Source: Sabellastarte sp. h YS-2021
Lineage: Eukaryota; Annelida; Polychaeta; Sabellida; Sabellidae
NCBI GenBank assembly: GCA_964017235.1
Contig: OZ024929.1
Coordinates: 110,717,793-110,781,792 of the forward strand
Reading direction: 5' to 3'
Length of the DNA stretch: 64,000 nt
Part shown: piece by piece, positions 345 through 64,000 of the stretch
How the letters are laid out: every line of letters begins with the position of its first letter
How positions within the stretch are numbered: position 1 is the first letter of the stretch
Translations under genes and position numbers: made by a program
Notes under the pieces: model-generated
The model's input: only the letters and a program-made list of their open reading frames with translations
Databases searched by the model: none
What the model was told of the DNA's origin: nothing

Positions 345-544
345 TTGTTTTCACCCATGGTGTCCGGGTGGGCGGACTGCGGGAAAAAGTTTGTCCTGTC
401 TATATCTCGGGAACCATAAGGTGTAGGAAGTTGATACTTGGTAGGGACATTAGCTAGGGGTTGTAGGTGTGCAACATCATGGTGTGACCTTGATTTGACC
501 TTTGACCTTGCCGTAGTGACCATTGTTATGTCTATAGCTCGCTT

Positions 545-1655
545 GGTATTGCATTTGGGACTAATAGCTCTATAAGTAAGCGAGTAATAGCCATTTAGGT
601 ACTTTATTCGCTATTTTCAATACTACTTCTGAGTAATTTGCTTATATCTCAGAAACCGTTACAGATAGAGCAATCTTGAGCAAATTTTTGACCCAAAGGG
701 TAATAGAAGATTATCCTGGGTAAAAATGAAAAATTTAAATTTTCGCAACTTATGGCGGCCATCTTGGATTTTAGCGGAAAATAAAAAAGTGTAAATATCT
801 CGGAAACGGTCAAAATTTTTGAGTGCCAGGATATCCCCCGAGTTGACTGGCGAGTTTTCCCAAAAAATCGTTTTCCTGCTATTTTTGGCAGCCATCTTTA
901 ATTTCTGCGTAAAACGTAAAAACGCATTTATCTCGGCAACAGTGTGAGATACAGCGATTTCGTCGAATTTTTGACCACCAGGGTATCAGAAGAGTCAACT
1001 GGTGACTTTCCCCAAAATTTATTTTACCGCCATTTTTGGTGGCCATCTTGAATTTCTGCGTAAAATACAAAAATGTATTTCGTTGAAATTTTTGATCGCT
1101 AGGGTATCTTAAGAGTTGACTGGCGACTTTTTCCAAAAATCGTTTTCCCGCCATTTTTGGCGGCCATCTTGACTTTCTGCGTAAAATGTAAAAACACATT
1201 CATCTCGGAAACGATGCAAGATAGAGCGATTTCGTCGAAATTTTTGACCCCCAGGGTATCAGTAGAGTCAACTGTCGACTTTTCCCATAAATCGTTTTCC
1301 CCGCCATATTTGGCGGCCATCTTGAATTTCTGCGTAAAACGCAAAAATGCATTTATCTCGGAAACGGTGCGAAATAGAGCAATTTCGTCAAAATTTTTGA
1401 CCCCCCGGATATCAGCAGAGTCAACTGGTGACTTCCCCAAAAATTGTTTTCCTTCCATTTTTGGAGGCTATCTTGAATTTCTGCGTAAAATCCAAAAATG
1501 TACTTATCTCAGAAACCTTGCATTTTTGGATAAATGGAAAAACATATTAAACACAGGAAGATAGTCATTTTGACAAAGTCATCAATGCACATTGGGACGC
1601 TTTGTTGATGCTGTGCAAAAACAATATCTTTTTCTCTTGTGAAGCAATACTCTGG
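545..1655 (+). mobile_element. Family A element, left-incomplete, nested in family P
   Basis: The right end carries GGGACGCTT (1594-1602), an imperfect hairpin (TTGTTGATGC / GCAAAAACAA), ATATCTTTTTCTC, and a terminal box GAAGCAATACTCTGG followed by TT. This matches the ends at 32511-32571 and 42632-42670. The interior is about five degenerate monomers of roughly 165-170 bp (650-1530). Each has a TATCTCGGAAAC box, GAGCGATTTCGTCGAA and GGCGGCCATCTTGAATTTC. The left hairpin of the family is not visible, so the start is approximate. Short open frames on both strands follow the repeat period and are not genes. Confidence 0.55.
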
Positions 1656-2153
1656 TTTAAGATTAATATTAATATTGTATATTTACATTTTCATCTTTTC
1701 ATAAATTGACTTATAGCCTTTCCAAGCATCGTGGGTGGACATTACACATGATAATGTGTTTTCCTGTATGCAATCCACCTATTTCCCTATTGTTCCACAT
1801 TCTCTTTTTACAGGGCTTCCTATTTCTAGTTATTATATGCACTTTTACATTATTGTGCTATTTCCATTGACAGCTATTCTCCAATTAATAAATTTTACAG
1901 CTTTACATTTTTTAGTTTGCTGATTAATGCTGTCGTCTTGCTATTGAATTGCCTTGTTTTAGTACATTATCTTCACATACATTTTCTTTCTCTTAGATGT
2001 TATTTTCTCTACTTCAACATTATTTGGAGTTTTTTATAACTGACACTGCTCTGAAAGCATCCAGATCTTTTACTGTTTCACCACTTCTATATCTCATGGT
2101 GTTGAAAACTTTTCCCCGGGCTGTGGGGTACGGGCATCTCTGATGCTATTTTT

Positions 2154-2805
2154 GCCGTTTTGATGAAATATCAGCCATTAGGTGGTCCAAAATGATGATG
2201 TTTTCAATTACCGGTTCCGAAATATTCTTTGCGAATTTTGTTATTTTTGCCAGAAACGATAAAAAAACTGCATAACGGTTTATCGTTCACAACACTACGA
2301 GTCAGTTATATTTGTATTTAATCTTTGAATCTGTGTGAATCAGTCTTAATGTATAGAAAATTTAGTAGCCCTGGTATATGAGAATGCAGTGCAGCTGATG
2401 CAATATAGCAGTTTACCCTGTTCAGAGGAAAGGATTTTTGTTGTTGTGTTTGAAATTTGACTTTGCAGGCTTAAAAAGTTAAAATTTATGTCTTTAAGAA
2501 CAGTACTGTGATCTACTTTGAACTAATTTTTGATGAAATATCTGCACACTCCTATGTGGATAATGGCATTCAACACACCTGGTTTAGTATTTGGTAAATG
2601 ATGGAAAGGATATGTAAACTTGATTATGGTTCATGAATACTGACACAACATACACACCAGGTATATTTTGGTAAAATATATACATGTAAACAGTAATATC
2701 AACAGCTGAATTACCTGTCAGTTACTTTTGGAAAAAAATTCTTCCAGACAGAAATGACACAGCTGACTATATTGAGTATTTACTTTGTTCACTTATGTTT
2801 GTTAG
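2154..2805. other. intron, no recognised feature
   Basis: AT-rich non-coding sequence between the family P element and the ECPAS exon. It ends in a T/G-rich stretch leading to the splice acceptor TTTGTTAG at 2798-2805. I see no repeat or RNA gene. Confidence 0.5.
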
Positions 2806-12730: not shown

Positions 12731-13057
12731 GTCCTGTTGCAGTAAACAGTCCTTTTCAGGACTAACTATAACAGTCCTTTTCAGGACTAACAAACAGTCC
12801 TTTTCAGGACTACCAAATATTCCAAAAACAATTAATCAGCTATGCTTGCTACAGACGGACAAACCCCATGCCAAACATAACTTGTACAGACGGACAAACA
12901 GACAAACCCCATGCCAAACATAACTTGTACAGATGGACAAACAGACAAACCTCATGCCAAACATAACTTTTTCAGATAGACAAACAGACAACCACAACTT
13001 ACTCAATTAAATTTTTATATATTTTGAAATGCACATCCTAATTTCACCAATTTTTTT
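12731..13057 (+). repeat. short tandem repeats after the transposase gene
   Basis: Three copies of ACAGTCCTTTTCAGGACTA (12738-12812), each a small hairpin (AGTCCT/AGGACT). Then three copies of a roughly 45-50-base unit containing CAAACCCCATGCCAAACATA and GTACAGACGGACAAACAG (12845-12985). The GGACTAA word resembles the subterminal motif of the transposon. Confidence 0.65.
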
Positions 13058-13090
13058 ATCTCCCGCCGGGCTTTAGCCCGGGAGGGAGAT
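13058..13090 (+). repeat. 5' terminal hairpin of family B
   Basis: A GC-rich near-perfect palindrome with the CCGGGC-TTTA-GCCCGG core. The inverted single arm at 17602-17611 defines an asymmetric terminal repeat pair. Confidence 0.75.
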
Positions 13091-13299
13091 TATGAAATGA
13101 TGTCTGTGTGTGCGTGCGTGCGTGCGAGTGTGCGTTAGTTAGTCACGCAGATTTCTCCAAAACTGCTACAACTACAGATTTTTTGTAAATTAATTGTCCC
13201 AATGAATTTTTATGCCCTTGAAAAAATTTTTGGTTTTATTGACTTAGGCCTAAAGATAAGTGAGTAATAGCAATCTTAGCTACTTTGAGTAAAGGGCTC

Positions 13300-15290
13300 A
13301 TAACTCAAAAACTATTGCAGTGACAACTTTTTCTTCAAATATGTTGTTCAGCTACTTTGTCCTTAGCTATAAGATGGTACATAGTTTGGGGTCCCATTGC
13401 ATGCCATAAGTGAGTAATAGCTATTTTCTCATTTGTAGCTAAATAACGGAAGAAGTAAATGTCAAATATCTTCAAAAGTATTGAAGTTAGGGAAATCTTT
13501 TCAAATATGTTGTCCATCTTCTTTTTGGTAAGCTATGACATAGTAAAGTTTCAGACCTGTTGCACCTTGGATAGCTGAGTAATAGCTACTTTGAAATTCT
13601 GACTGGTGAGTAAAGCGATTGTAACTCCAAAACTATTGCAGTTAGAGTATTTTCCTAAAATATGTTGTTCAGCTACTTTGTCCTTAGCTATAAGATGGTA
13701 CATAGTTTGGGGTTCTATTGCATGCCATAAGTGAGTAATAGCTATTTTCTCATTTGTAGCTAAATAACAGAAGAAGTAAATGTCAAATATCTTCAAAAGT
13801 ATTAAAGTTAGGGAAATCTTTTCAAATATGTTGTCCATCTACTTTTTGGTAAGCTATGACATAGTAAAGTTTCAGACCTGTTGCACCTTGGATAGCTGAG
13901 TAATAGCTACTTTGAAATTCTGACTGTTGAGTAAAGCCATTGTAACTCCAAAACTATTGCAGTTGCAGTATTTTCCTAAAATATGTTGTTCAGCTACTTT
14001 GATCTTAGCTATAAGATTGTACATAGTTTGGGGTTCTATTGCTTGACATTAGTGAGTAATAGCTATTTTCTCATTTGTAGCTAAATAACAGAAGAAGTAA
14101 ATGTCAAATATCTTCAAAAGTATTGAAGTTAGGGAAATCTTTTCAAATATATTGTCCATCTACTTTTTGGTAAGGTATAACATAGTAAAGTTTCAGACCT
14201 GTTGCACCTTGGATAGCTGAGTTATAGCTACTTTGAAATTCTGAGTGTTGAGTAAAGCCATTGTAACTCCAAAACTATTGCAGTTAGAGTATTTTCCTAA
14301 AATATGTTGTTCAGCTACTTTGTCCTTAGCTATAAGAGGGTACATAGTTTGGGGTTCTATTGCATGCCATAAGTGAGTAATAGCTATTTTGTTATTTGTA
14401 GCAAAATCATGACATAAGTAGATGTCAAATATCTTCAAAAGTATTAAAGTTAGGGAATTCTTTTCAAATATGTTATCCATCTACTTTTTCATAAGCTATC
14501 ACATAGTAAAGTTTCGGATCTGTTGCACATTGGATAGCTGAGTAATAGCTACTTTGAAATTCTACAGTTGAGTAAATCCATTGTAACTCCAAAACTATTG
14601 CAGTTACAATATTTTCGTAAAATATGTTGTTCACCTACTTTGTCCTTAGCTATAAGCTGGCATGTAGTTTGGGGTTCTATTGCATGCCATAAGTGAGTAA
14701 TAGCTATTTTCTTATTAGTAGCAAAATAATGACATAAGTAAATGTCAAATATCTTCAGAAGTATTAAAGTTACGGAATTATTTTCAAATATGTCATTCAT
14801 CTACTTTTTTGTAAGCTATCACATAGTAAAGTTTCAGACCTGTTGCACATTGCATAGCTAAGTAATAGCTACTTTGAAATTGTGACTGTTGAGTAAATTC
14901 ATTGTAACTCCAAAACTATTGCAGTTACAGCTTTTTCTTCAAATATGTTGTTCAGCTACTTTGTCCTTAACTATAAGATGGTATATATCTTGGGGTTGTA
15001 TTGGATGGCATAAGTGAGTAATAGCTATTTTCTTATTTGTAGCAAAATAACAACATAAGTAAATGTCAAATATCTTCAAAAGTATTAAAGTTAGGGAAAT
15101 ATTTTCAAATATGTTATTCATCTAGTTTTTGATAACCTATCACATAGTAAAGTTTCAGACCTGTTGCACATTGGATAGCCGAGTAATACCTACTTTGAAA
15201 TTGTGACTGCAGGGTAAATGCATATAGTTTGGGGTTCTATTGCATGCCATAAGTGAGTAATAGCTATTTTCTTATTTGTGGCAAAATGAT
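13300..15290 (+). repeat. tandem array, 321-bp higher-order unit of two ~160-bp monomers
   Basis: GCTACTTTGTCCTTAGC recurs at about 13351, 13672, 13993, 14313, 14633 and 14954, a spacing of 320-321. Within each unit two related halves can be seen, one with TCTTCAAAAGTATTGAAG and one with TAACTCCAAAACTATTGCAG. This is therefore a dimeric higher-order repeat. The last copies (after 15120) are degenerate. Short minus-strand frames here only reflect the period. Confidence 0.9.
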
Positions 15291-17500
15291 GACATAATTT
15301 TTCTCAAATAACTGCTTCATCTACTTTTGGGAGAGCTTTCACATGGTGAAGTTTCAGACCCGTAGCTAATTATTCACCTACTCAAAATGAGTAAATGATA
15401 ATTATCTCTAAAAGTATTGCGGATATCCAATTTTTATCAAATAACTCATTCATCTACTTTTGGGAGAGCTTTCACATGGTGAAGTTCCAGACCCGTAGCT
15501 AATTACTCACCTACTCAAAATGAGTAAATGATAATTATCCCTAAAAGTATTGGGGATATCCAATTTTTCTTAAATAACTCATTCACCTACTTTTGGAAGA
15601 GCTTTAACTTGGTGAAGTTTCAGACCCGTAGCTAATTATTCACCTACTCAAAATGAGTAAATTCTAATTATCCCTAAAAGTATTGTGGATATCCAATTTT
15701 TATCAAATTACTCGTTCATCTACTTTTGGGAGAGCTTTCACATGGTGAAGTTCCAGACCCGTAGCTAATTACTCACCTACTCAAAATGAGTAAATGTGAA
15801 TTATCTGTAAAAGTATTGCAGATATCCAATTTTTCTCAAATAACTCATTCACCTACTTTTGGGAGAGCTTTTACTTGGTGAGGTTTCAGACCCGTAGCTA
15901 ATTATTCACTTACTCAAAATGAGTAAATGTGAATTATCTCTAAAAGTATTGGGGATATCCAATTTTTCTCAAATAACTCATTCACCTACTTTTGGAAGAG
16001 CTTTCACTTGGTGAAGTTTCAGATCCGTAGCTAATTATTCACCTACTCAAAATGAGTAAATGCTAATTATCTCTAAAAGTATTGTGGATATCCAATTTTT
16101 ATCAAATTACTCGTTCATCTACTTTTTGGAGAGCTTTCACATGGTGAAGTTCCAGACCCGTAGCTAATTACTCACCTACTCAAAATGAGTAAATGTGAAT
16201 TATCTGTAAAAGTATTGCAGATATCCAATTTTTCTCAAATAACTCATTCACCTACTTTTGGGAGAGCTTTTACTTGGTGAGGTTTCAGACCCGTAGCTAA
16301 TTATTCACCTATTCAAAATGAGTAAATGTGAATTATCTCTAAAAGTATTGGGGATATCCAATTTTTCTTAAATAAGTCATTCACCTACTTTTGGAAGAGC
16401 TTTCACTTGAAGTTTCAGACTCGTAGCTAATTATTCACCTACTCAAAATGAGTAAATGCTAATTATCTCTAAAAGTATTGTGGATATCCAATTTTTATCA
16501 AATTACTCGTTCATCTACTTTTGGGAGAGCTTTCACATGGTGAAGTTCCAGACCCGTAGCTAATTACTCACCTGCTCAAAGTGAGTAAATGTGAATTATC
16601 TGTAAAAGTATTGCAGATATCCAATTTTTCTTAAATAACTCATTCACCTGCTTTTGGGAGAGCTTTTACTTGGTCAGGTTTCAGATCCGTAGCTAATTAT
16701 TCACCTACTCAAAATGACTAAATGTGAATTATCTCTAAAAGTATTGCGGATATCCAATTTTTATCAAATATCTCATTCATCTACTTTTGGGAGGGCTTTC
16801 ACATGGTGAAGTTCCAGACCCGTAGCTAATTACTCACGTACTGAAAATGAGTAAATGTGAATTATCTCTAAAAGTATTGCAGATAGCCAATTTTTATCAA
16901 ATAACTCATTCACCTACTTTTGGGAGAGCTTTCACTTGGTGAATTTTCAGAGCCGTAGCTAATTATTCACCTACTCAAAATGAGTAAATGCTAATTATCT
17001 CTAAAAGTATTGCGGGTATCCAATTTTTATCAAATTACTCGTTCATCTACTTTTGGGAGAGCTTTCACATGGTGAAGTTCCAGACCCGTAGCTAATTACT
17101 CACCTAATCAAAATGAGTAAATGTGAATTATCTGTAAAAGTATTGCAGATAGCCAATTTTTCTCAAATAACTCATTCACCTACTTTTGGGAGAGCTTTCA
17201 CTTGGTGAAGTTTCACACCCGTAGTTAATTATTCACCTACTCAAAATGAGTAAATGCGAATTATCTCTACAAGTATTGCAGATAGCCAGTATTTCTGAAA
17301 TAACTCCTTCACATACATTTTGGAGAGCTTTCAATTAGTGAATTTTCAGATCTGTAGCTAATTACTCACCTACTCAAAATGAATAACTGCCTGTTATCAC
17401 TAAAAGTATTGCAGATAGCCAATATTTCTCAAATAACTCTTTCACCTACATTTTGGAGAGCTTTCACATGCTAAATTTTTTAAATAATTTTTAATGCATT
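15291..17500 (+). repeat. tandem array, 133-bp monomer
   Basis: About 16 copies. CTACTTTTGG starts at 15321, 15453, 15587 and 15720, about 133 apart. Each monomer contains TTATCTCTAAAAGTATTGC, CTCAAATAACTCATTCA, AGAGCTTTCAC, CAGACCCGTAGCTAATTA and the small palindrome TACTCAAAATGAGTA. The same monomer fills 29800-32060 and 40980-42180. Confidence 0.9.
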
Positions 17501-17639
17501 AAAATTCATGAAATCATGCGCTAAATCAATTATAACTTGAAAAGTATTACATTTAGAGCACCTTGTTAAAATATGTTATCTTTAGTACATCTAATTTATA
17601 TGGCGGGAGATAAATGCATGCATCAGAATGCTTGTTTTT

Positions 17640-18534: not shown

Positions 18535-19850
18535 TGCATTAAAATTCATGAAATCATGCACTAAATCACTTATAACTTCAAAAGTGTTGCATTTACAGCA
18601 TTTTGTGAAAATATGTTGTTCAGCTACTTTTTTCATAGCTACAATATGGTGAGTAACTTGGGTGTCTGTCTCAATAGCTAAGTGAGTAATAGCTACTTTT
18701 GGGCTTTTCAGTAACTTCCATTATGAGTAAAATCACTTGTAACTTAAAAACTATTGCATTTAGAGAATTTTGTATAAATATGTTATTCAGCTACTTTTGG
18801 GCCAGCTATAACATAGTGAAATTTCAGACCTGTAGCTCATGGCATAGCTGAGTAATAGCTACTTTTAGGTTATCACTGTTGAGTAAATCACTTATAACTT
18901 GAAAACTATTGCATTTAGAGAATTTTGTATAAATATGTTATTCAGCTACTTTTGGGTCAGCTATAACATAGTAAAATTTCAGACCTGTAGCTCATGGCAT
19001 AGCTGAGTAATAGCTACTTTTAGGTTATCACTGTTGAGTAAATCACTTATAACTTGAAAAGTGTTGCATTTAGAGCATTTTGTTAAAATATGTTATTCAG
19101 CTACTTTTTTCATAGCTACAATATGGTGAGTAAGTTGGGTGTCTGTCTCAATAGCTAAGTGAGTAATAGCTACTTTTGGGCTTTTCAGTAACTTCCATCA
19201 TGAGTAAAATCACTTGTAACTTAAAAACTATTGCATTTAGAGAATTTTGTATAAATATGTTATTGAGCTACTTTTGGGCCAGCTATAACATAGTGAAATT
19301 ATAGACCTATAGCTCATGGCACAACTGAGCAATAGCTATTCTCAGGTACTGACTGTTGAGTAAATCAGCTATAACTTGAAAAATATTGCATTTGGAGTAT
19401 TTTGTTAAAATATATTGTTCACCTACTTTTGGGTCAGCTATAACATAGTGAAATTACAGACCTATAGCTCATGGCATAGCGGAGCAATAGCTATTTTCAG
19501 GTTCTCACTATTGAGTAAATCAGTTGTAGCTTGAAAACTATTGCATTTACAGTAGTTTGCTTAAATATGTTGTTCACCTACTTTTGGGTTAGCTATAACA
19601 TAGTAAAATTTCAGACATGTAGCTCATTGCATAGCTGAGTAATAGTTCCTGTGAGGTTCTCACTGTTGAGTAAATCAGTTGTAACTTGAAAACTATTACA
19701 TTTAGAGTAATTTGTTAAATATGTTATTCACAGAATTTTTGGTCAGCTATAACATAGTGAAATTGCAGACCTCTATGTCATGGCATAGCTGAGCAATAGC
19801 TACTTTCAGGTTCTCACTGTTGAGTAAATCATTGTATCCACTGGATAGCC
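18535..19850 (+). repeat. tandem array, ~160-bp monomer (type TATTCAGCTACTTTTGG)
   Basis: About eight copies, each with CTTATAACTTGAAAACTATTGC, TTTGTTAAAATATGTTATTC, AGCTATAACATAGTGAAATT and GAGTAATAGCTACTTTT words. A two-monomer alternation is visible, with GGTGAGTAACTTGGGTG in every other copy near its start. Related monomers occur at 24790-24960, 54660-54850 and 63780-64000. Confidence 0.85.
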
Positions 19851-19979: not shown

Positions 19980-20615
19980 GAGAAACAAGATGGCCGCCAC
20001 AGGTGTTTTTTGTCAGTCATGAAAAGTGCTTATATCTCCCTTATTATCGATCCTAGAGGTTTGGGATGATAAACCAACATGTAGGAAATCATGGGGTGGG
20101 AATCTTTTGGTGTGGTCAGATTTGACCTTCAATGACCCCTCCTTCAAGGTCAAACAAGGATAGCCAAACTTAAAAGTGCTTATAACTCGCTTATTATTGG
20201 TCCCAGAGGTTTGGGATGGTAAACAGACAGGAAATCATGGGCTGTGAATCTGTTGATATGGTCCGATTTGACCTTGGAACCCTCCTTCAAGGTCAAATGA
20301 GGATAGCGAAAATTGAAAGTGCCTACAACTCGCTTATTATTGGTGACAGAGATTTGGGATGGTAAACCATCCCACAGGAAATCATTGGCTCGGAATCTTT
20401 TGGTATGGTCAAATTTGACCTTTGGACCCCTCTTTCAAGGTCAAATGAGGACAGCCAAGCTTAAAAGTGCTTATAACTCATTTATAATTGGTCCTAGAGG
20501 TTTGGAATGGTAAACCATAGGAAATCATGGGCTGGGAATGTATTTGTGTGGTTAGATTTGACCTTGGACCCCTTCTTCAAGGTCGAACGAGGATATTGCA
20601 TTTGTAGTATTTCTT
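19980..20615 (+). repeat. tandem array, ~146-bp monomer
   Basis: About four copies with CTTATATCTCCCTTATTATC or CTTATAACTCGCTTATTATT, GGTCCTAGAGGTTTGGGAT, AGGAAATCATGGGCTGGG and TTTGACCTTGG...CTTCAAGGTCAAA. The inner TTTGACCTTG/CAAGGTCAAA pair can fold into a stem. Confidence 0.85.
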
Positions 20616-26090: not shown

Positions 26091-26745
26091 CTTCTCAAAT
26101 TTGCAGGATATATTTATAACCATAAAATCTTGCCTGGGAATATTTTTGGCCTCATTTTAAAAAAAACAAGATGGCCGCCACAGGTGGTTTTTCGACTTTC
26201 AGCAAGGAGTTTTGTTAGCCCTCTAGAGCAAAGGCTATTGAAGGTAGAGATCTCAAATTCGAAGGATATGTTCATCATTACAAAATCTTGACTGGAAATA
26301 ATTTTGGCCTCATTTTGAAAACCAAGATGGCCACTATGGGCATTTCTTTTCAGTCATGAAAAGTCCTTATATCTCCCTTATTATTGGTCCTGCAATGTGA
26401 AACCAACCTATAGGAAAACATGGGCTATGAATCTTCTTATGTAGTCAGATTTGACCTTGGGCCCCTCCTGCAAGGTCAAACAAGGATAGCCAAACTTAAA
26501 AGTTCTGTCAACTCACTTATTATTGGTCCTAGAGGTTTGTAGTGTGGAACCAACCTATTGCAAAAAATGGGCTATGAATCTTCTCATGTGGTCAGATTTG
26601 GCCTTGGACCCCTCCTTCAGGGGCAACTGAGGATAGCCAAACTGAAAAATGCTTATCACTCACTTATTATTGGTCCTAGAGGTTTGCAATGTGAAGCCAA
26701 CCTCTAGGAAATCATGTGCTAGTTAAATGTTTATATCAACCAGCA
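26090..26745 (+). repeat. ~146-bp satellite monomers with a GGCCGCCACAGG leader
   Basis: Two copies of a leader unit (TTGCCTGGGAATATTTTTGG, AAGATGGCCGCCACAGG) precede about three monomers of the GGTCAGATTTGACC type. The same leader-monomer order occurs at 53270-54540 and 19920-20610, so it is a recurring module. An AT-rich tail without a feature follows to 26900. Confidence 0.7.
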
Positions 26746-28792: not shown

Positions 28793-29149
28793 TTAAGCGT
28801 CCCGCAAGGGACGCTTGTTTGTGTATGGGAGAGCTTCAGGCTCCGCCGGCTCCGGCGGCTCCGCATTTTGTTTTCCTTATAACTCTGTAACCGTTAGGCG
28901 GATTCTTTTCAAATTTGGCAGGTTTAGGCAGTAGCCTTGGGGGATTTTTTTGAATATGCTGCAGTGACATTTCAACCAATCAGAGAGGTCACATGACCAA
29001 AAATATCTTTTTTCGATGGGGAAGCTTGTCCGGATGATAACTTGAAAGGAATTTTATCAATTCACCTGAAACTTGGCAAATACATTCATTCTATTAAAAT
29101 CTGGAAATCATTAGATTTTGGCATTGATTGGTCAAGAAATGGCCGAGTA

Positions 29150-32070: not shown

Positions 32071-32571
32071 ACGAAAATGACAAATTGTGAATATCTCGGA
32101 AAAGCTATTTCTTCTGCTTTAATGCTCGGCGGGAGATACACACCACGGCAGTGGTCTTGACAAAAATTTTTGTCTCCCCAAAAATGGTGGCCATTTTGAA
32201 TTTTCAAAGTTTTTGCAAAACACAAAAATGCTTATATCTCGAAAACCGTGCTATATGGAGCGAACTCAACAAAATTTTGACCTGCTGGGTATCTCTGCAG
32301 AGTAGCCATGCCAATTTTCAAAATATTTTTGTCTCGCCAAATATAGCGGACATTTTTAATTTTTTTATTTTTTGCAAAACACAAAAATGCTTATATCTTG
32401 AAAACCGTGCTAGATAGAGCAGACTGCGCTGACTTTGGTTGCCACAACAGTATAAGGCTAGAAACGAAGCATTTTCTTAATACTTTAGCACTCACCTTTA
32501 TATCCTTTTCGGGACACTTTGTTTTTGCTATGCAAAAACATTATCTTTTTTTTTTGCGAGCGATCCTCTAG

Positions 32572-33996: not shown

Positions 33997-34059
33997 CAGG
34001 ATTTATGCTGAGTGGCATATAGGGATTGCTTCGTCATCCAATTTTATGGCGTCGTCTGT

Positions 34060-39985: not shown

Positions 39986-42670
39986 TTAAGCGTCCCCGCA
40001 AGGGACGCTTGTTTGTGTATGGGAGACCTTCAGGCTCCGCCGGCTCCGCATTTTGTTTTCCTTATAACTCTGTAACTGTTAGGCGGATTCTTTTCAAATT
40101 TGGCAGGTTTAGGCAGTAGCCTTGGGGAATTTTTTTGAATATGCTGCAGTGACATTTCAACCAATCAGAGAGGTCACATGACCAAAAATGTCTTTTTTTG
40201 ATGGGGAAGCTTGTCCGGATGATAACTTGAAAGGACTTTTATCAATTCACCTGAAACTTGGCGAATACATTCATTCTATTAAAATCTAAAAATAATTAGA
40301 TTTTGGCATTGATTGGTTAAGAAATGGCCGAGTAATTAATGATTAATTAATCATTATGAATTTTCCAAATAAGGAAAACACAAAAATGCTTATATCTCGA
40401 AAACCATGCTAGATAGAGTGATTTCGACGAAATATTTGACCCACAGGGTATATTTGAAGAGTAGTTATCCCAATTTTCAAAAAAATTTTGTCTCGCCAAA
40501 AATGGCGGCCATTTTGAATTTTCGAATTTTTCGCAAAAATTGCAAAACATAAAAATGCTTGTATCTCGAAAACCGTACTAGATAGAGCGATTTCGACGAA
40601 ATTTTTGACCCGCACGGTATCTCTCCAGAGTAGCCATGCCTATTTTCAAAAAAATTTTGTTTCGCCAAAAATGGCGGCCATTTTGAATTTGCGAATTTTT
40701 CGCAAAAATTGCAAAACATAAAAATGCTTATATCTCGAAAACCGTGCTAGATAGAGCGATTTCAACGAAATTTTTGACCCATAGGGTATCTCTGCAGAGT
40801 AGCCATGCCGATTTTCAAAAAAATTTTGTCTTGCCAAAAATGGCTGCCATTTTTAATTTTCGAATTTTTGCGCAAAAATTGCAAAACACAAAAATGCTAA
40901 TATCTCGAAAACCGTACTACATAGAGCGATTTCGACGAAATTTTTGATCTTCAGGGTATCTCTGCAGAGCAGCTATCCCAAAGAGCTTTCACTCAGTGAA
41001 GTTTCAGACCCATAGCTAATTATTCACCTACTCAAAATGAGTAAATGCTAATTATCTCTGAAACTATTGTGGATACCCAATTTTTATCAAATAACTCATT
41101 CATCTACTTTTGGGAGAGCTTTCACATGGTGAAGTTTCAGACCCGTAGATAATTACTCACCTACTCAAAATGAGTAAATGCGAATTACCTCTAAAAGTAT
41201 TGCAGATAGCCAATTTTTCTCAAATAACTCATTCACCTACTTTTGGGAGAGCTTTCACTCAGTGAAGTTTCAGACCCATAGCTAATTACTCACCTACTCA
41301 AAATGAGTAAATGCTAATTATCTCAAAAACTATTGCGGATACCCAATTTTTATCAAGTAACTCATTCATGTACTTTTGGAAGAGCTTTCACATGTTGAAG
41401 TTTCAGACCCGTAGATAATTACTCACCTACTCAAAATGAGTAAATGCGAATTATCTCTTAAAAGTATTGCAGATAGCCAATTTTTCTCAAATAACTCATT
41501 CATCTACTTTTGGAAGAGCTTTCACATGGTGAAGTTTCAGACCCATAGCTAATTACTCACCTACTCAAAATGAGGAAATGCAAATTATCTCTAAAAGTAT
41601 TGCAGATAGCCAATTTTTCTCAAATAACTCATTCACCTACTTTTGGGAGAGCTTTCACTTGGTGAAGTTTCAGACCCATAGCTAATTATTCACCTACTCA
41701 AAATGAGTAAATGCTAATTATCTGTAAAAGTATTGCGGATACCCAATTTTTATCAAATACTCATTCATCTACTTGTGGGAGAGCTTTCACATGGTGAAGT
41801 TTCAGACCCCTAGCTAATTACTCGCCTACTCAAAATGAGTAAATGTGAATTATCTCTAAAAGTATTGCAGATAGCCAATTTTTCTCAAATAACTCATTCA
41901 CCTACTTTTGGGAGAGCTTTCACTTGGTGAAGTTTCAGACCCACAGCTAATTATTCACCTACTCAAAATGAGTAAATGTGAATTATCTCTAAAAGTATTG
42001 CGGATACCCAATTTTTATCAAATAACTCATTCATCTACTTTTGGGAGAACTTTCACTTGATGAAGTTTCAGACCCATAGATAATTACTCACCTACTCAAA
42101 AGGAGTAAATGTGAATTATCTTTTAATAGTATTGCAGATAGCCAATTTTTCTCAAATAACTCATTCACCTACTTTTGGAAGAGCTTTCACACACGAAAAT
42201 GATAAATTGTGAATATCTCGGAAAACCTATTTCTTGTCCTTCAATGCTCGGCGGGAGATACACACCGTGGCAGTGGTCTTGTCAAAAATTTTTGTCTCCC
42301 CAAAAATGGTGGCCATTTTGAATTTTCAAAGTTTTTGCAAAACACAAAAATGCTTATATCTCGAAAACCGTACTAGATGGAGCGAACTCAACAAAATTTT
42401 TGACCTGCTGGGTATCTCTGCAGAGTTGCCATGCCAATTTTCAAAATCTTTTTGTCTCGCCAAATATAGCAGACATTTTGAATTTTCGAAATTTGCAAAA
42501 CACAAAAATGCTTATATCTTGAAAATCGTGCTAGATAGAGCAGACTGCGCTGACTTTGGTTGCCCCAACAGTATAAGGCTAGAAACGAAGCATTTTCTTA
42601 ATACTTTAGCACTCACCTTTATATCCTTTTCGGGACGCTTATCTTTTTTTTTTTGCGAGCGATCCTCTAG
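39986..42670 (+). mobile_element. Helitron-like satellite element, family A, inserted in a LINE
   Basis: The left hairpin is AAGCGTCCCC/GGGACGCTT (39988-40010), with the same leader as at 28793. The core has about four 168-bp monomers (40380-40970), about nine 133-bp monomers (40980-42180) and two 168-type monomers. The right end has GGGACGCTT (42632-42640), a T tract and GCGAGCGATCCTCTAG (42670), followed by TT. The internal 3' hairpin present at 32520 is missing here. The LINE frame is restored if the element is removed, which fixes both ends to within a few bases. Confidence 0.8.
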
Positions 42671-42835
42671 TTATTCTTCCATCTATAAATCAAGGGTCCA
42701 CTTCAACAACAGGTTCTCATATGATGAACCGAAGGTATGGAATGATCTTCCACATGACATTCGCTGTGCTCCAGATCTCTCATGTTTTAAAAGTTGACTA
42801 AAAAACTACCTATTTCAGAAATCTTTTCCACCTTA
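42671..42835 (+). pseudogene. CR1/L2-like LINE, C-terminal end and 3' part
   Basis: Continues the protein interrupted at 39985, with YKSRVHFNNRFSYDEP, KVWNDLPHDIRCAPDLSCFK and LKNYLFQKSF. This is the conserved C-terminus of CR1/L2-like proteins (LWN-LP-IR...FK..LK.YLF). One TGA splits it at about 42797. The LINE 3' untranslated region may run to about 43030, but no tail repeat is clear. Confidence 0.8.
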
Positions 42836-48956: not shown

Positions 48957-50376
48957 TACCCCACAGCCCTTAAGGGTTAAAAATTTGTAAATCTTGTCCA
49001 GGGTATATCCCTGAAACAGTAAGGTGTAGGAAGTTGATACGTGATAGGGACATTGATTAGGGGGTGTAGGTGTGAAGCATCATGGTGTGACCTTGATTTG
49101 ACCTTTAACCTTGCCGTAGTGACCTTGACATATAAAATCTTGTCCGGGCTATATCTCGGAAAGTGTAAGATGTAGGAAGTTGATACTTGGTAGGAACATT
49201 GGTAGGGGGGTGTAGGTGTGTAACATCATTGTCTGACCTTGATTTGACCTTGCCGTAGTGACCTTGACCTTTAAAAACTTGTCCAGGCTATATCTCAGAA
49301 ACCGTACGGTGTGAGAAATTGATACTTGGAAGGGACATTGGTTAGTGTGCAACGTCATGGCATGACCTTGATTTGACCTTTGACCTTGCTGTAGTTAACT
49401 TGACTTATAGAATCTTGTCTGGGTAATATCTTGGGAACCGTAAGGTGTAGGAAGTTGATACGTAGTAGGGACATTGGTTAGGCGGTGTAGGTGTGCAACG
49501 TCATGGCGTGACCTTGATTTGACTTTTAACCTTGCTGTAGTGACCTTGACCTATAAAATCTCGTCCCGGGTATATCTTGGGAACCGTAAGGTGTAGGAAG
49601 TAAGGACATTGGCTAGGGTGTGTAGATGTAAAATGTCATGGTGTGACCTTGATTTGATCTTTGGCCTTGCCGTAGTGACCTTGACCTATAATACCTTGTG
49701 TGGACAATATTTCAGAAACCATGAAGTGTAGGAAGTTAATATTTGGTAGGGACATTGGTCGGAGGTTATATGTGTGCATCGTCATAGTGTGACCTGGATT
49801 TGACCTTTGATTGTGCATATCTGATGCTATTTTTTCTCTCTATTGGGATATCTGATACTGTTTTATCTCACTTATATCTCTATTATATCTTTTTGCTTGA
49901 ATCTTGGTTGTTGCACCTTTGGGTGTCTTTTGATCTAGATAAAGCACTGTTAAAGTCATATTAGAATTCATTAACTGTTTTTCTTTTGCAACTTCCCATT
50001 GTCACAGATGGTATATGCATCAAGTGATTCACAGGTTTTGCCCCAACTCCACAATAAAGGATGTATTGCCACATCTATGTATGGGTAATATTCAAAACAT
50101 TCAAACAATAATTCGACCATACAAATGAATATCAAAATGGGAGAAGTCTCAAAGCTTCATAAATTTTAGTTAACTGAATTGTCCTGTTTTCATACTTAAT
50201 ATTTACATGCAGTTTCTTTCTCTTAGATGTTATTTTTTCTACTTAAACATAATTTGGACACTGACACTGCTCTAAAAGTATCCCAATCTGTGTACTGTTT
50301 CACTACTTCTATATCTCATGGTGTTGAAAACTATTTCCCCAGACTGTGGATTACAGGTAGCTCTGATGCTATTTTT
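48957..50376 (+). mobile_element. Helitron-like satellite element, family P, copy 2
   Basis: The left terminus TACCCCACAGCCCTTAAGGG (48957) has a decayed second arm. The right part (50210-50376) matches copy 1 up to TCTGATGCTATTTTT. The core is about six monomers of 136-148 bp (49004-49820). An extra 3' end, GCATATCTGATGC followed by TATTTTTT (49815-49835), lies in the middle, so one P element may be inserted in another or the end duplicated. No coding sequence. Confidence 0.6.
49000..49820 (+). repeat. tandem array, ~140-bp monomer (type GTAGGAAGTTGATAC)
   Basis: TATATCTCGGAAACCG-type boxes start near 49004, 49150, 49289 and 49425. Each is followed by GGTGTAGGAAGTTGATAC, AGGGACATTGG, GTGTGCAACGTCATGG, GACCTTGATTTGACC and TTGCCGTAGTGACCTTGACC. 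The TTTGACC and TTGACC words repeat within each monomer. Confidence 0.88.
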
Positions 50377-50620
50377 CATCCTTTTCTATAGCTAAAGTCA
50401 TACAATGACTGGAAGTGATTCCCAAAGTGTATTCAGCTGAATTTGAACTGACACTTACAACGGAGTCAAATGATGTAGTCTACAAAAACATGGGCAAAAT
50501 TTCAACACTCCATACATATTTGATGTAGTGAGTACCAGTATATATTGAGTGCAGGTCAGGTCTCCGTTCAACACAAAATTATTGCAGATCATAAACTGGA
50601 ACCTTTGATCATTAAATTAG
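50377..50620. other. downstream flank of the minus-strand gene
   Basis: No repeat was recognised. The sequence is 3' to the condensation-like gene and may hold its terminator or poly(A) site, but none can be assigned. Confidence 0.4.
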
Positions 50621-52131: not shown

Positions 52132-52946
52132 TTTCTTACTTGTTTTGCTAAATGCAGTACACTATATGAGGCTATCCTGATAGTCTAGGTAAATAAAAAG
52201 ATTGTAACTATCTATACAATATGTAACTCTCTATGTGATCCAAATTTGGGGTCATGAGCAATTTTTGACAATTAATTATGCTTATTTTCCAAAGTGTAAG
52301 GTACTAGTTAGTAGAACACTAGTGTTTGTATCCAAATTAAATGATTAACCAGTCAATATCATGCATATGTATCATTTCTCGGGTTCACATATTAACCACC
52401 TTGAACAAACACACAGTCTCAACAGTATATTTCTCCTCAGAAGTAACCAACTCTCACCTGGTACAACAAATGTAAAACTTGAAGATTAAAACTTCTTAAG
52501 ATCGATAGCACTGAATGTTGACTATTCAGTCTATTTTCTCACAAACCATGTGCAAAGTATCCCATGCAAAGAAATGACTTAAATGGTGATCTCTCTCTCT
52601 CTCTCTCTTCTGCATTAAATGCCGAATGTGATACTATTTGTTTTTTAACACATATACATGTACATGGTATTTTCCGTACCAAAACTAGCCTATTTACTGC
52701 ACAAACCAGCTTTTTATTATGAAAGATAAATTTCAAATTAACGCCTGTCTCCTTCGGCTCTTTTCACCAGTCAAGTGGCGTACATGTTGGAGCCCAACTA
52801 TGGAGTCAGCCCATCTTAAGATGGACTATAGCTTAACATAGGATCAGAAGTTGGCTAAGCCCATCTTAAGATGGGCTAGAACATATTAGGATATTTAAGT
52901 TCTTTAAATACTTCAATTTTAATTAAAGAGCCTTTGATTGTGAATT
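52132..52946. other. upstream flank: simple repeat and palindromes
   Basis: Contains a CT repeat (about 52590-52609). Two related palindromic words lie at 52805-52880 (CCCATCTTAAGATGG with AGCC/GGCT flanks), forming an inverted pair that may be a small foldback element. No gene is recognised. Confidence 0.5.
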
Positions 52947-54597
52947 GTATCCCCAGACGAAAGTTGGGGATACTTAGGATTCAGTATGGTCACGCCGCCG
53001 CAGAGATTTCCTTTCGGACGCAATAACTTAAATAAGATTTTAGTTAGACCTGTGAAATTTGGTATATGGGCAATGCCAGGAACACTATTGTTGTGTGACC
53101 TTGACCTTCGGCTTCTATGGCTGGTATATATAACACATATATATGTCCTTTGTAAGCATGCAGAAATTTGACCCTGAAGCTAGTCATTGAAGGTAATCCA
53201 CAGACCGCCAAAGTACCTCACCGAAGTACGTTTGTGGAGATATTTTCACACTTAAAGTACTATAGCTACCCTTCTCAAATTTACAGGATATATTCATAAC
53301 CATAAAATCTTGCCTGGGAATATTTTTGGCCTCATTTTTGAAAAACAATATGGCCGCCACAGGCGTTTTTTCGACTTTCAGCAAGGACTTTGTCGGCCCT
53401 CTAGAGCAAAGGGTATTATAGGTAGAAATCTCAAATTCGCAGGATATGTTCCCCATTACAAAATCTTGAGTGGGAATATTTTTGGCCTCATTTTGAAAAA
53501 CAAGATGGCCGCCACAGGCGTTTCTTTGTCAGTCATGAAAAGTGCTTATATCTTCTTATTATTATGTCAAGCCAACCTATAGGAAATCATGGGCTTGGAA
53601 TCTTTTGATGTGGTCAGATTTGATCTTTGACCCCTCCTTCAAGGTCAAACGAGGAAAGCCAAACTTAATAGTGCTTGTAACTCACTTATTATTGGTCCCA
53701 GAGGTATGGGATGGTAAACCAACGTATAAGAAATCATGAGCTGGGAATCTTTTGGTGTGGTCAGATTTGATCTTAGATCCCTCCTTCAAGGTCAAACGAG
53801 GATAGTCAAACCTAAAAGTGCTTATAACTCGCTTATTATTGGTCCTAGAGGTTCTGAATGGTAAACCAACGTATAGGAAATCATGGACTGAGAATCTTTT
53901 GGTGTGGTCAGATTTGACCTTGGACCCCTCCTTCAAGGTCAAATGAGAATAGTCAAACCTAAAAGTGCTTATAACTCGTTTATTATTGGTCCTAGAGATT
54001 TGGGATGGTAAACCAACATGTAGGAAATCATGGACTGGGAATCTTTTGGTTTGGTCAGATTGACCTTGGACCCCTCCTTCAAGGTCAAACGAGGATAGTC
54101 AAACCTAAAAGTGCTTATAACTCGTTTATTATTGGTCCTAGAGGTTTGGGATGGTAAACCAACCAATAGGAAATCAATGGCTGGGAATCTTTTGGTGTGG
54201 TCAGATTTGACCTTGGGCCCCTCCTTCAAAGTCAAATGACGATAGCAAAATCTAAAAGTGGTTATAAATTGCTTTTTCTTGGTCTTACAGGTTTGTAATG
54301 TGAAACCGTCGTGTAGGAAATCAGGGGCTGGGAATCTTTTGATGTGAACAGATTTGACCTTTGGCCCCTCCTTCAAGGTCAAAGGAGGATAGCCAAAATT
54401 AAAAGTGCTTATAACTTGCTTATTCCTGTTCCCAGAGGTCACATCAACCTATAGGAAATCATCGGCTAAGAATCTTTGACGTGGTCAGATTTCACCTTGG
54501 GCTCGTCCTTCAAGGTTAAGCGATGGTTGATTGGCTTTGGTGAGTTTTCTTTCAGGTAGATACAATTTGCCTCGGTTCTCCGATGCACTAGATCTAG
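52947..54597 (+). mobile_element. Helitron-like satellite element, family V, copy 2
   Basis: The left hairpin is GTATCCCC...GGGGATAC (52947-52973), with the same leader as at 26901 (ACGCCGCCGCAGAGATTTCC, GACGCAATAACTTAAAT). The core has two CTTGCCTGGGAATATTTTTGG leader units and then about six 146-type monomers (53540-54540). A CTAG followed by TT at 54594-54597 is a possible right end, but the internal GGGATAC repeat was not found, so the right boundary is tentative. Confidence 0.55.
53540..54545 (+). repeat. tandem array, ~146-bp monomer
   Basis: TTATAACTCGCTTATTATTG-type boxes start at about 53822, 53969 and 54114. Each is followed by GGTCCTAGAGGTTTGGGAT, AACCAACCTATAGGAAATC, GGTGTGGTCAGATTTGACC and CTCCTTCAAGGTCAAACG. 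Minus-strand open frames here reflect the period, as the monomer length keeps frames open. Confidence 0.9.
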
Positions 54598-61518: not shown

Positions 61519-62003
61519 TCCATGAGCCAGCATGGTTGGTCGGTACCAAATTAGGGAATAATGCTCATGGTAATTTTTGGAAAGGTATACATCTGTAGAG
61601 TTAGAAAATATATGATAGCAGTATATCAGTGGTAGCTTTATGTATGCTATCATGCTTTTCATAACACCCCCCTATAATGAATATTTCGTAAAGTATGGTA
61701 ATATGAAGTATAATGAATATATACAGATTTTTGTGAATTTGGTTAACTGACACCTCCACATTATTATTTGTTAAAATAACAATAAAGTTTAAGGCCTATT
61801 CATGCCATAGTGTTTTATATTTTACGTTGAAAACAGTGTTATTGGTGGTAATCCAAGTACATGCGTAATTTTGAGTAGAAGCAAATTCTTTAACTTTTGA
61901 CAAAAATATTGGTTGATTACTTTAGAAAATGCTTAGACAACCCTATGATACCTGAAACTACATTGGATTTGTTCAGAATTTATTTAACAATTCAAATATC
62001 TAA
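61519..62003 (+). other. LINE 3' region and flank
   Basis: AT-rich, non-coding. AATAAAG near 61780 may serve as a polyadenylation signal of the LINE. No other feature is seen before the reversed family A element. Confidence 0.45.
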
Positions 62004-63675
62004 CTAGAAGAATATTTGTGCTCACAAAAACAAAGCGTCCCCAAAGGTTAGATGCAAATAGTATAAAAGTAGAAAAATGTTTTTGAAAAAAAAAACCAGC
62101 AGCGCTGTGAGAAGAAGTGAAAGTTAAACAGACAGTGTGGAGATTTATGCATTTACATGAAAGAAAAAAATGTAAAGTTTTATTTTGTTTTCTATGGTCA
62201 TTAATACATTCTAAAGCTGTAAAAGCAATCTGACCGGCTATATAGGAATATATGGAATCCATTCTAAAGCTGTAAAAGCAATAATAAAGGAGATATAAGA
62301 CAAAAACAAAAAAAATTGCCCAGTATAAGCCCAGTTTGACCCATAATTTGGGGGAGGGGGGTAAGGGGGTAAATCTGAGTGGCTATGTATATGCTTCTGT
62401 ATATACTTTCCTATAACCTCACAATACATTCTAAAGCTGTAAAAGCAATAGTAAAAGAGATATAAGGCAAAAAGACCAAATCAGCTATTTTTATGTCCCC
62501 ATTTTGACCCATAAGGGGGAGTTTGGGGGTAAATATGACCGGATATCTAGAATCCCTGTCTATGGTTTCCTATAACCTGTCAATACATTCTAAAGCTGTA
62601 AAAGCAATACTGAAGGAGATATAAGGCCAAAAGACAAAATCTACTATTTTATTACCCTAGTTTGATCCATAGGAGGGGGTCAGGGGTAAATCTAACAGAC
62701 TATCTAGACTCTATGAATATGGTTTCCTATACCTCTCCATACATTCTAAAGCTGTAAAAGCAATGATAAAGGAGATATAAGGTAAAAACACAAAATCATC
62801 TATTTTATGACCCCAGTTTGACCCACATGTTGGGTCAGGGGATAGATGTGACCGGCTATATAGACTGTCCATATATGGTTTCTTAATACCTATTATTACA
62901 TTCTACAGCTGTAAAAGCAATACTAAAGAGATAGAAGACAAAAAGCCAAAATCTGCTATTTTATCACCCCAGTTTGACCCAAAAGGGGGATCGGGGGGTA
63001 AATCTCTTCATACATTCTAAAGTTTTAAAAGCAATAATAAAGGAGATATAAGGCAAAAGCACAAAATCTGCTATTTTATTACACCAGTTTGACCCATAAG
63101 TGGGTGCCAGGGTTTAAATTTGACTGGTTATCTAGACTCTCCATATATGGTTTCCCAATACCTCTTTATACATTCTAAAGCTGTAAAAGCAATAATAAAG
63201 TAGATATAAAGCAAAATGTCATCCGCTATTTTATGACCCCAGTTTGACCCCCTATATTGGATGGGGGTTAACTTATTTTCTAGACTCTCCACATATGGTG
63301 TCTTACTACCTCTCAATATATTTTATGGCTCTTAATACGATACTTAAGAATACAATAGGTTCGCATGATTTTTTAAGCTTTCTGGTTGGTACCTGTGAGA
63401 AAATCGCTCATTAAGAAGTTAATTTTCATCGGACCACTTCCAAAATCTAAATAGGTTTTGAAAGTATAAACATGTGTATGAAATGACAAGCCTCTGCAGT
63501 AAGTAGATTTTGCCGAATGGACTTGATAAAGACCAAAGGTCAAATTTAAGCATGTTGAAAAATTTACCCATTCTTAAGGTATATTACTGCCAAATGTGGT
63601 TAGAAAGCTTCCAATAATAAGGGAGAAATTCAAGGGAGACCATAATGTGGCGGGGGCGCTTTCAGGGACGCTTAA
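62004..63675 (-). mobile_element. Helitron-like satellite element, family A, reversed copy
   Basis: On its own strand it starts TTAAGCGTCCCT (63675) without the second hairpin arm. It ends GGGGACGCTTTG, a hairpin TTTGTG-AG-CACAAA, ATATTCTT and CTAG (62004), followed by TT. The termini match the copies at 28793 and 39986. The core is different: about eight monomers of roughly 160 bp with GCTTTTACAGCTTTAGAATG, CTTATATCTCCTTTATTATTG and TGGGTCAAACTGGGGTC, the type nested at 27412. The monomer nearest the 5' end is degenerate. Confidence 0.7.
62230..63330 (-). repeat. tandem array, ~161-bp monomer
   Basis: On the + strand CATTCTAAAGCTGTAAAAGC recurs about every 150-165 bases (62261, 62426, 62586, 62742 and on). 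Each time it is followed by AATAAAGGAGATATAAGGC and, later, CCCAGTTTGACCCATA. This is the inverse of the box TTATATCTCC and of the array at 27.4-28.0 kb. Confidence 0.88.
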
Positions 63676-63775
63676 TTATATATTCCATAAAGTCTATACT
63701 CACATCACTACAGTATTCAATGTTATCCCTACCCCTTAATAGTAAAAATGTCTTTTGGCATAATTTATAGTGTTT
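63676..63775. other. short unassigned spacer
   Basis: AT-rich, no feature recognised. Confidence 0.4.
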
Positions 63776-64000
63776 CATCCACGTCATCAATCTATGTCAC
63801 CTGACTTTGAGGTTATTACTGTTGAGTAAATAGCTTGTAATCTGAAAACTATTGTATTTACAGAATATTTTTAAATATGTTTTTCACCTACTTTTGGGTC
63901 AGCTATAACATAGTAAAATTGCAGACCTGTAGCTCATTGAAAAGCAGAGCAATAGCTACTTTGAGGTTCTTGATGTTGAGTAAATCAGTTGTAACTTAAA
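63776..64000 (+). repeat. ~160-bp-type monomers, continuing past the window
   Basis: GTTGAGTAAATAGCTTGTAA, TTTTCACCTACTTTTGGGTC, AGCTATAACATAGTAAAATT and GAGCAATAGCTACTTT words as at 18.5-19.8 kb. The array runs off the end of the window. Confidence 0.75.

What the first reader, a model, noticed from the sequence alone, without database searches (positions are those of the whole stretch)
391..64000. At least seven different satellite monomers share a TTATATCTCnnnAA box
Monomers of about 133, 140, 144, 146, 160, 161 and 168 bp look unrelated over most of their length. Each nevertheless has one copy of a similar box: TTATCTCTAAAAGTATTGC (133), TATATCTCGGGAACCG (140), AGTATCTCAAAAATGGC (144), TTATAACTCGCTTATTATT (146), TTATAACTTGAAAACTATTGC (160), TTATATCTCCTTTATTGTTGC (161), TTATATCTCGAAAACCG (168). 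Either all monomers descend from one ancestor, or the box is under constraint as a protein-binding, replication or RNA-structure element. The monomer lengths are close to nucleosomal DNA. I know of no description of such a shared box, though I cannot search.
Basis: partly seen in the sequence, partly recalled or inferred. Interest (0 to 1): 0.85.

Follow-up and report, generated by a model that had tools for sequence, protein, structure and literature searches.

The report
Shared core of transposon-borne satellite repeats
Satellite repeats that look unrelated in this large animal genome share a short stretch of DNA, very probably because they began as repeated blocks near the front end of rolling-circle transposons (Helentrons), including some that still carry the Rep gene; what the shared stretch does is not known.

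Summary
The box is real, but drawn too narrow and its families over-counted. Seventeen arrays collapse to six families; the 133 and 155-160 bp monomers are homologous. The box is the left edge of a core of about 56 bp that stays in register and fades to background. In 200 kb of another chromosome, not used for training, the profile scores 181 hits against 4 in reversed sequence.

The arrays sit in Helentron-like elements: palindromic left end, first core usually 65-110 bp inside, fixed orientation. Two Rep-encoding Helentron families, 28% identical in the protein stretch compared, also carry core-bearing repeats between left end and genes; one (H2) carries the window's 140-bp family in the same left-end context. 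So the box most likely marks repeats of common Helentron origin.

Constraint on individual copies is not supported: within families the box varies about as much as the rest. RNA structure, a CENP-B box and coding were tested and not supported. A Rep-binding or origin-like role is possible but untested. Helentron-borne satellites, and motifs shared by dissimilar satellites, are published; I found no description of this core or its link to Rep-encoding elements in the papers searched.

The parts
313..2153 (+). Element related to Helentron H2: palindromic left end CACAGCCCTTAAGGGCTG (from about 313), first core (F6 type) at 399, an F1-like unit near 533 (by eye), F2 units and arrays 643-1516, H2-like internal sequence 1910-2153; right end not resolved (a GGGACGCTT at 1594 may belong to another element)
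   Evidence: 84% identity of 306-521 to H2 over 216 bp and matches of 1910-2153 to H2
13056..17613 (+). Element with left end TTATCTCCCGCC palindrome at 13056, first core at 13148, 321-bp (2 x 160) F1 array 13301-15209, 133-bp F1 array 15296-17470, inverted copy of the left-end motif at 17613 read as right end
18562..19836 (+). F1 array, 155/477-bp period
20022..20595 (+). F3 array, 143-bp period
26391..26711 (+). F3 array, 147-bp period
27412..27952 (+). F4 array (160 bp) behind a left-end motif TTAAGCGTCCC at 27412 that directly follows the first half of an F3 core (GCTTATAACTTG)
   Evidence: (core 78 bp inside)
28793..32573 (+). Type A non-autonomous Helentron-like element: left palindrome AAGCGTCCC-GCAA-GGGACGCTT, core unit at 28876, a weaker second unit near 29036 (by eye), F2 array 29190-29796, F1 133-bp array 29797-32068, F2 units at 32231 and 32390, right end from 32511 with hairpin GTTTTTGC-TAT-GCAAAAAC
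39986..42672 (+). Second copy of the type A element; core unit at 40061, F2 array 40375-40981, F1 array 40982-42191; its right end lacks the hairpin
34014..38600 (+). F5 (144-145 bp) repeats behind a left-end motif GGCATATAGGGATTG at 34014 and a GTC-rich stretch; arrays 34077-34363 and 35644-37804, further copies to about 38600; limits approximate
   Evidence: H1 Helentron repeats match F5 over 55-59 bp
48962..50378 (+). F6 (135-140 bp) element, relative of Helentron H2: left-end motif at 48962, array about 49006-49810, H2-like internal sequence 50085-50378; right end not resolved
52945..54516 (+). Left-end motif TTGTATCCC...GGGATAC at 52945, core at 53020, F3 array 53572-54516
62041..63675 (-). 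F4 element on the minus strand: left end TTAAGCGTCCC at 63675, weak first core at 63632, array 62356-63005 with further units to about 63250, subterminal GGGACGCTT at 62041

Best explanation
The box is the left edge of a core of about 56 bp in direct repeats that belong to the 5' side of Helentron rolling-circle transposons. Shown here: Rep-encoding Helentrons of two families carry core-bearing tandem repeats between the palindromic left end and their genes, on the Rep strand; non-autonomous elements in the window have the same layout; repeat number differs between near-identical copies (6 cores against 7). Inferred: the monomers descend from one ancestral repeat near the left end; units are amplified inside elements, diverge, and are amplified again, so each element lineage ends with its own satellite while the core fades last. 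Inferred and weaker (about one in three): the core is a cis-acting site that working elements need, such as a Rep or host-protein binding site near the replication start (iteron-like), or a 5' regulatory site; dead copies then drift freely, which would fit similarity between families without slow change within them.
For: Held-out enrichment 181 against 4 and 58 against 0. Similarity confined to 0-56 bp in register. Fixed orientation (140 against 2) and unit register across junctions. Element anatomy: left palindromes, right subterminal repeat and hairpin, common terminus. Left-end segments found without the box: 12 of 21 have a core of at least 10 bits on the inward strand (6 of the 12 are type A copies), 2 on the other strand, random segments 14.7%. 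H1: Rep, PIF1 and endonuclease match, 6 and 7 cores on the Rep strand from +106, repeats match F5 (E 1e-5 to 4e-5 against a small family database). H2: seven F6-type cores, 84% identity of left end and first unit to window 306-521, DUF6570, OTU and Rep.
Against: Within families the box is not clearly slower than the rest. F5 alone is not significant. H1 against H2: the 32-bp core alone is not significant (p 0.275) and H1 core against nine unit types gives p up to 0.05 in 4 of 9. A third H1 copy has no core on the Rep strand upstream. Of 12 left ends chosen by eye, 5 failed or were marginal. The H1 array contains a second, internal copy of the left-end motif, so its history may be nested. No type A, F1, F2, F3 or F4 Rep-encoding partner was found; only H1 and H2 were examined.
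Confidence: 0.8

Rival explanations
1. Iteron-like cis site (functional form of the best explanation): the core is bound by Helentron Rep or a host factor near the start of rolling-circle replication, and repeats are kept because they load or titrate it.
For: First core 65-110 bp inside the left end in 15 of 17 tabulated ends of several unrelated left-end sequences (list made from ends where a core was seen, one placed by eye). Core-bearing repeats on the Rep strand in H1 and H2. Sharp left edge of the shared segment.
Against: No binding data. No clear slow-down of the box within families. The core is degenerate between H1 and H2.
Confidence: 0.3
2. Descent only: the core is simply the part of the ancestral repeat that has faded last, with no present function.
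For: Box ranks near the middle of the monomer within families. Graded fading on the right side (0.44, 0.33, 0.28).
Against: Neutral fading should not leave one 56-bp segment at 0.33-0.44 identity and the rest at background, with a sharp left edge. The longer 29-bp window ranks 1 of 93 in F6 and 17 of 94 in F3, and the 33-bp window 8 of 159 in F4 and 18 of 169 in F2.
Confidence: 0.35
3. Independent capture: unrelated satellites taken up by Helentrons converged on the box because it binds a host protein.
For: Monomers are at background similarity outside the core; capture of filler DNA by such elements is proposed in PMC7492417 (Discussion part 1).
Against: In-register similarity continues to +56, unit register is kept across junctions, and the core is present in repeats of Rep-encoding elements. 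Ten of eleven other tandem-repeat groups of the sample do not pass.
Confidence: 0.08
4. Rearrangement motif: the box promotes junctions between monomers, as proposed for Box 1 of root-knot nematode satellites.
For: Two type A ends lie inside an F3 core (window 27412 and L014 4466). Nematode precedent (PMC3694981, abstract and one section).
Against: The F2 to F1 junction at 29796/29797 lies about 85 bp after one core and 67 bp before the next. PMC5139131 passages report no statistical support for a link of junctions and motifs in BIV160 and Cg170.
Confidence: 0.1
5. Chance: the box is AT-rich noise.
For: Width-12 and width-17 motif searches are weak (8 and 2 of 60 shuffles as good); F5 alone is not significant.
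Against: 181 against 4 in held-out sequence; 58 against 0; 29,638 exact copies of one form against 0 for the reversed word.
Confidence: 0.01

Closest known systems
Cg_HINE elements and their central repeats CL1-CL13 of Crassostrea gigas (PMC7492417; passages, Discussion part 1 of 2)
   Same: Non-autonomous Helentrons with left and right modules, microsatellite, 140-180 bp central repeats in fixed orientation; CL1, CL2, CL10, CL13 and CL4 monomers share two short conserved segments although the rest is dissimilar.
   Different: The paper could not relate the elements to autonomous Helentrons; here one satellite family (F6) is tied to a Rep-encoding element. Whether the shared oyster segments are this core could not be checked (figures and supplements not held).
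Helentrons and HINEs / DINE-1 (PMC4067079; passages)
   Same: Palindromic subterminal repeats, 3' palindrome, microsatellite and tandem repeats, Rep/helicase with C-terminal endonuclease, OTU protein.
   Different: No core shared by the tandem repeats of different families is described in the passages read.
BIV160 / Cg170 satellite family of bivalves (PMC5139131; passages)
   Same: Divergent monomers that share two well-conserved motifs, linked to Helitron-type elements.
   Different: BIV160 and Cg170 are 64.6% similar overall; the families here are at background outside the core.
Box 1 of Meloidogyne satellites (PMC3694981; abstract and one section)
   Same: A 17-bp box conserved in satellites that are only 32-64% identical.
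   Different: CENP-B-box-like and located at some monomer junctions; the core here does not match the CENP-B box (3-5 of 9 essential bases) and is tied to Helentron left ends.

Membership tests
HINE (non-autonomous Helentron), type A element | Palindromic subterminal repeat 2-4 nt from the 5' end | tested here: met
   TT-AAGCGTCCC...GGGACGCTT; full palindrome in 6 of 9 left-end matches
HINE (non-autonomous Helentron), type A element | Subterminal repeat 38-60 bp and palindrome 8-35 bp from the 3' end | tested here: met
   Six right ends with a common terminus CTCTAGTT: subterminal repeat exact in 5 of 6, hairpin in 5 of 6; distances of about 54 and 34 bp counted from the printed L003 end
HINE (non-autonomous Helentron), type A element | Insertion at T-rich sites without target duplication | tested here: inconclusive
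   Left flanks end in A/T-rich letters in 8 of 9 rows, one ends in TTG; empty sites were not compared
HINE (non-autonomous Helentron) | Tandem repeats in one fixed orientation to the ends | tested here: met
   Cores inward from the left end in 12 of 21 segments against 2 on the other strand, both read as right ends; neighbouring cores same strand 140 against 2
Helentron, element H1 | Rep and PIF1-type helicase in one open frame | tested here: met
   PF14214 93 bits, PF05970 97.8 bits in L037:1-4266
Helentron, element H1 | C-terminal endonuclease domain | tested here: inconclusive
   PF03372 at the C-terminus, E 1.2e-4, 22.4 bits against a cut-off of 24.5
Helentron, element H1 | Matching subterminal repeat and palindrome at the 3' end | tested here: inconclusive
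   CAACCCGCC at L037 4924, 658 bp after the open frame; no hairpin identified in the printed region
Helentron, element H2 | Rep domain, with OTU accessory protein | tested here: met
   PF14214 119.1 bits; OTU 24.2 bits against a cut-off of 23.3, and DUF6570
Helentron, element H2 | Helicase and C-terminal endonuclease | not tested
BIV160 / Cg170 satellite family | The two conserved monomer motifs | not testable with these tools
   Motifs are in figures and supplements that were not available
CENP-B box | nTTCGnnnnAnnCGGGn, 9 essential bases (pattern recalled) | tested here: not met
   Best match 3-5 of 9 in six cores; 5-7 of 9 anywhere in the monomers

The most novel reading that the evidence does not exclude
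The core is a cis-acting initiation site of Helentron rolling-circle transposition, read by Rep or a host factor. A large part of this genome's satellite DNA would then be amplified origin-proximal transposon DNA, and each satellite family would be born when an element lineage duplicates its own left-end repeat. That would give a testable rule for where new satellites come from.
Probability: 0.25. Interest if true: 0.75.

Novelty: new variant of a known kind. Interest (0 to 1): 0.52.

Why it matters
The oyster paper read here weighs two origins for Helentron-borne tandem repeats: captured filler DNA, or the element's own sequence. Finding the core in repeats of Rep-encoding elements of two families and in satellites of non-autonomous ones favours the second. 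It ties one satellite family (F6) to a Rep-encoding relative, a kind of link that paper left unresolved. It also gives a defined segment of about 56 bp that can be tested for protein binding.

Tried and rejected
Coding relic: the reverse complement of the core reads like a peptide end (for example LPNLKRIRLTVTEL* and LPRINFLHLTVSEI*), but conservation has no three-base period (0.44, 0.49, 0.42 by codon position); rejected. RNA structure: z -1.6 to +1.4; the only Rfam match in the window is a histone stem-loop outside the repeats. CENP-B box: not met. Pattern scans of viral contigs: four, 0 hits; prokaryote contigs: one, 0 hits. Six box strings in papers: 0 papers. A loose scan with a hand-made matrix was uninformative: 1675 hits against 1317-1406 in Markov controls. 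In one search the F1_155 query returned no copies; F3 and F4 left only 2 representatives each, and two F2 consensus monomers showed no core. In one search, of the ten other tandem repeats that do not pass, the nearest had 16 and 93 of 1000 shuffles as good. Of 12 left ends picked by eye, f, h and k failed (931, 418, 1413 of 2000) and i and l were marginal (72, 75). No Rep or helicase frame was recognised by eye among the 33 long open frames of the fetched pool outside the window.
Full report
What was claimed.

The arrays. TRF lists them. Consensus monomers of 17 arrays with period 121-169 or 321 fall into six families by whole-monomer similarity: F1 (133, 155, 321), F2 (121, 153, 169), F3 (143-147), F4 (156-160), F5 (145), F6 (135). 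Between families only short, weak matches remain (E 0.004 or worse); I did not check where each of them lies, and two are on opposite strands.

Is the box real? Blind motif search finds it in 6 of 6 families at width 25, beyond all 60 shuffles; widths 12 and 17 are weak. The window lies in a genome of 1,785,957,881 bases in 647 contigs. I fetched 20 stretches of 10 kb from contig C1, one every 4 Mb from 5 to 81 Mb. A profile trained only on the window gives 181 hits in these 200 kb and 4 in the reversed sequence; 15 of 20 stretches have hits, 145 hits lie in tandem arrays of period 100-500, and such arrays (of any kind) cover 15.6% of the sample. Four 5-kb stretches on other contigs give 58 against 0. 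Scaled from C1 alone this would be of the order of 1.6 million cores (inference). Specificity: the sample has 11 further tandem-repeat groups; one (period 351, L012, here F7) passes (0 of 1000 shuffles), ten do not, the nearest at 16 of 1000.

Extent. With 13 unit types lined up on the box (78 pairs), in-register identity is 0.44 over 0-32 bp, 0.38 over 10-32, 0.33 over 32-56, 0.28 and 0.26 further down, 0.28 (66 pairs) and 0.25 (28 pairs) upstream, against 0.26-0.27 off register. Pairs are not independent; five units are left-end units lined up by eye and two (F7, H1) were found with the profile, so the first 10 columns in particular are favoured by choice. A gapped test on 12 units agrees in tendency: p up to 0.05 in 19 of 66 pairs for the core, 10 downstream, 7 upstream.

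Constraint within families. This result goes against the constraint reading. In window copies the 17-bp box ranks 16/133, 58/155, 27/321, 17/169, 88/147, 53/159, 64/143 and 53/146 among windows of its monomer, and a 33-bp window 94/133, 94/155, 71/321, 18/169, 67/147, 8/159, 69/143 and 35/146 (low end columns come partly from truncated copies). Among representatives under 80% identity the box ranks 37/92, 53/128, 70/106, 64/118, 74/102 and 27/105, and a 29-bp window 59/80, 41/116, 17/94, 41/106, 74/90 and 1/93 for F1 to F6. Among array consensus monomers of F1, F2 and F5 a 12-bp box ranks 33/154, 34/140 and 54/145 and the 32-bp core 62/154, 49/140 and 86/145. So the box is at most somewhat above average.

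Setting. The best defined element (type A) is 28793-32573, with a copy at 39986-42672: left palindrome AAGCGTCCC-GCAA-GGGACGCTT, a core unit of its own sequence (a second, weaker one by eye), an F2 array, an F1 array, F2 units, and a right end with subterminal repeat, hairpin GTTTTTGC-TAT-GCAAAAAC and common terminus. In the window plus fetched pieces I count nine left-end matches (six with the full palindrome) and six right ends (hairpin in five, exact subterminal repeat in five). This fits the published HINE description (PMC4067079 passages). Left-end motifs written without the box match 21 segments: 12 have a core of at least 10 bits on the inward strand (six are type A copies, two of these in loci fetched by a box match), 2 on the other strand, which I read as right ends; inward exceeds outward in 14 of 21; random segments reach 10 bits in 14.7%. 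The first core lies 65-110 bp inside in 15 of 17 tabulated ends; that list holds copies, one end placed by eye, and leaves out ends where no core was seen (for example window 26015, L017 4508, L019 5803, L020 8060). Neighbouring cores agree in strand 140 to 2. Across changes of monomer type, or next to unclassified hits, the 45 spacings of 60-400 bp are 139-176 bp (21) or 225-373 bp (24), with none between; several are copies of one junction.

Rep-encoding Helentrons. PF14214 has 24 matches in this genome and none in 14 control genomes. H1 (C3, near 168.67 Mb) has Rep and PIF1 helicase in one frame and a C-terminal endonuclease match just under its cut-off. Two copies, 98.5-98.6% identical over their two longest aligned stretches, have a left end TAGG(C/T)GGGTTG...CAACCCGCCTA, a GTCY microsatellite, and 6 or 7 cores on the Rep strand, 164-221 bp apart, the first at +106; a second, internal copy of the left-end motif lies in the array. 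In the first 900 bp of one copy 1 of 500 shuffles reaches the best core score. H1 repeats match F5 over 55-59 bp at 75-76% (E 1e-5 to 4e-5 in a database of ten monomers). A third copy (L039, C11) has no core on the Rep strand in the 8 kb read; a DIRS-like frame (my reading) lies at its far end. H2 (C3, near 189.22 Mb) has another left end, TACCCCACAGCCC-GTAA-GGGCTGTCGGGGTA, seven F6-type cores on the Rep strand, the first about 86 bp inside, then DUF6570, OTU and Rep. Its left end and first unit are 84% identical over 216 bp to window 306-521, and sequence after its array matches window 50085-50378 and 1910-2153 at 68-82%. H1 and H2 are 28% identical over 228 aligned residues of the DUF6570 region; their 5' DNA gives no significant blastn match (best E 0.074) and their 32-bp cores alone are not significant (p 0.275), while their repeats agree at 57% over 56 bp in register (no separate p value). 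H1's core against nine unit types gives p up to 0.05 in four (F2, F5, F6, F7).

Reading. Shown: the box marks direct repeats on the 5' side of Helentron elements, including Rep-encoding ones of two families. Inferred: one ancestral left-end repeat, repeatedly amplified and diverged, gave the satellites. Open: what the core does. A Rep- or origin-related cis site is the function I rank first, at about one in three; descent without function is an equal rival.

Known or new. Satellites inside Helentrons, fixed array orientation, and short motifs shared by dissimilar satellites are published (PMC7492417, PMC5139131, PMC3694981; what I read of each is given under Closest known systems; PMC8268682, PMC11136912 and PMC12628747 were seen as passages). 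In the searches I found no description of this core or of its presence in Rep-encoding elements. Most listed papers were seen as titles and abstract starts only, and oyster monomer sequences could not be read, so this speaks only for what I searched.

Noticed in passing
window 49006-49810 (F6) and 20022-20595, 53572-54516 (F3): The arrays are rich in nuclear-receptor-like half sites: TCAAGGTCA 11 times and TGACCTTGA 14 times in the window (about 0.24 expected for TCAAGGTCA from base composition), and TGACCTTTGACCT twice. Repetition inflates the counts.
   Followed up: partly
window 53969-54442 (-) and L014: The 147-bp F3 monomer is 3 x 49 and reads as an open frame of 49-residue repeats on the minus strand (157 aa in the window, 218 aa in L014). 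Probably chance.
   Followed up: no
window 5842-9795 and 44877-48707: Two DIRS-like retroelement copies, 81% identical over about 4 kb; the name is from my reading of the frames.
   Followed up: no
window 2810-2900 and 25600-25780 (+): Two short stretches that read like exons of a host gene; ECM29/ECPAS is my guess from recall, not tested.
   Followed up: no
window 20947-20992 (-): Histone 3' UTR stem-loop, 37.8 bits against a gathering score of 34, next to a MADF-domain frame at 21020-22234 (-).
   Followed up: no
window 50621-51926 (-): Acyltransferase-like gene: AATase match in one frame, condensation/PapA_C matches below cut-off in the other.
   Followed up: no
window 27412 and L014 4466: Two type A element ends lie inside an F3 core, so these elements may insert into each other's repeats.
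   Followed up: partly
L038 4127-4764: Dense palindromic TATAAACGTTTATA repeats between the F6 array and the genes of Helentron H2.
   Followed up: no
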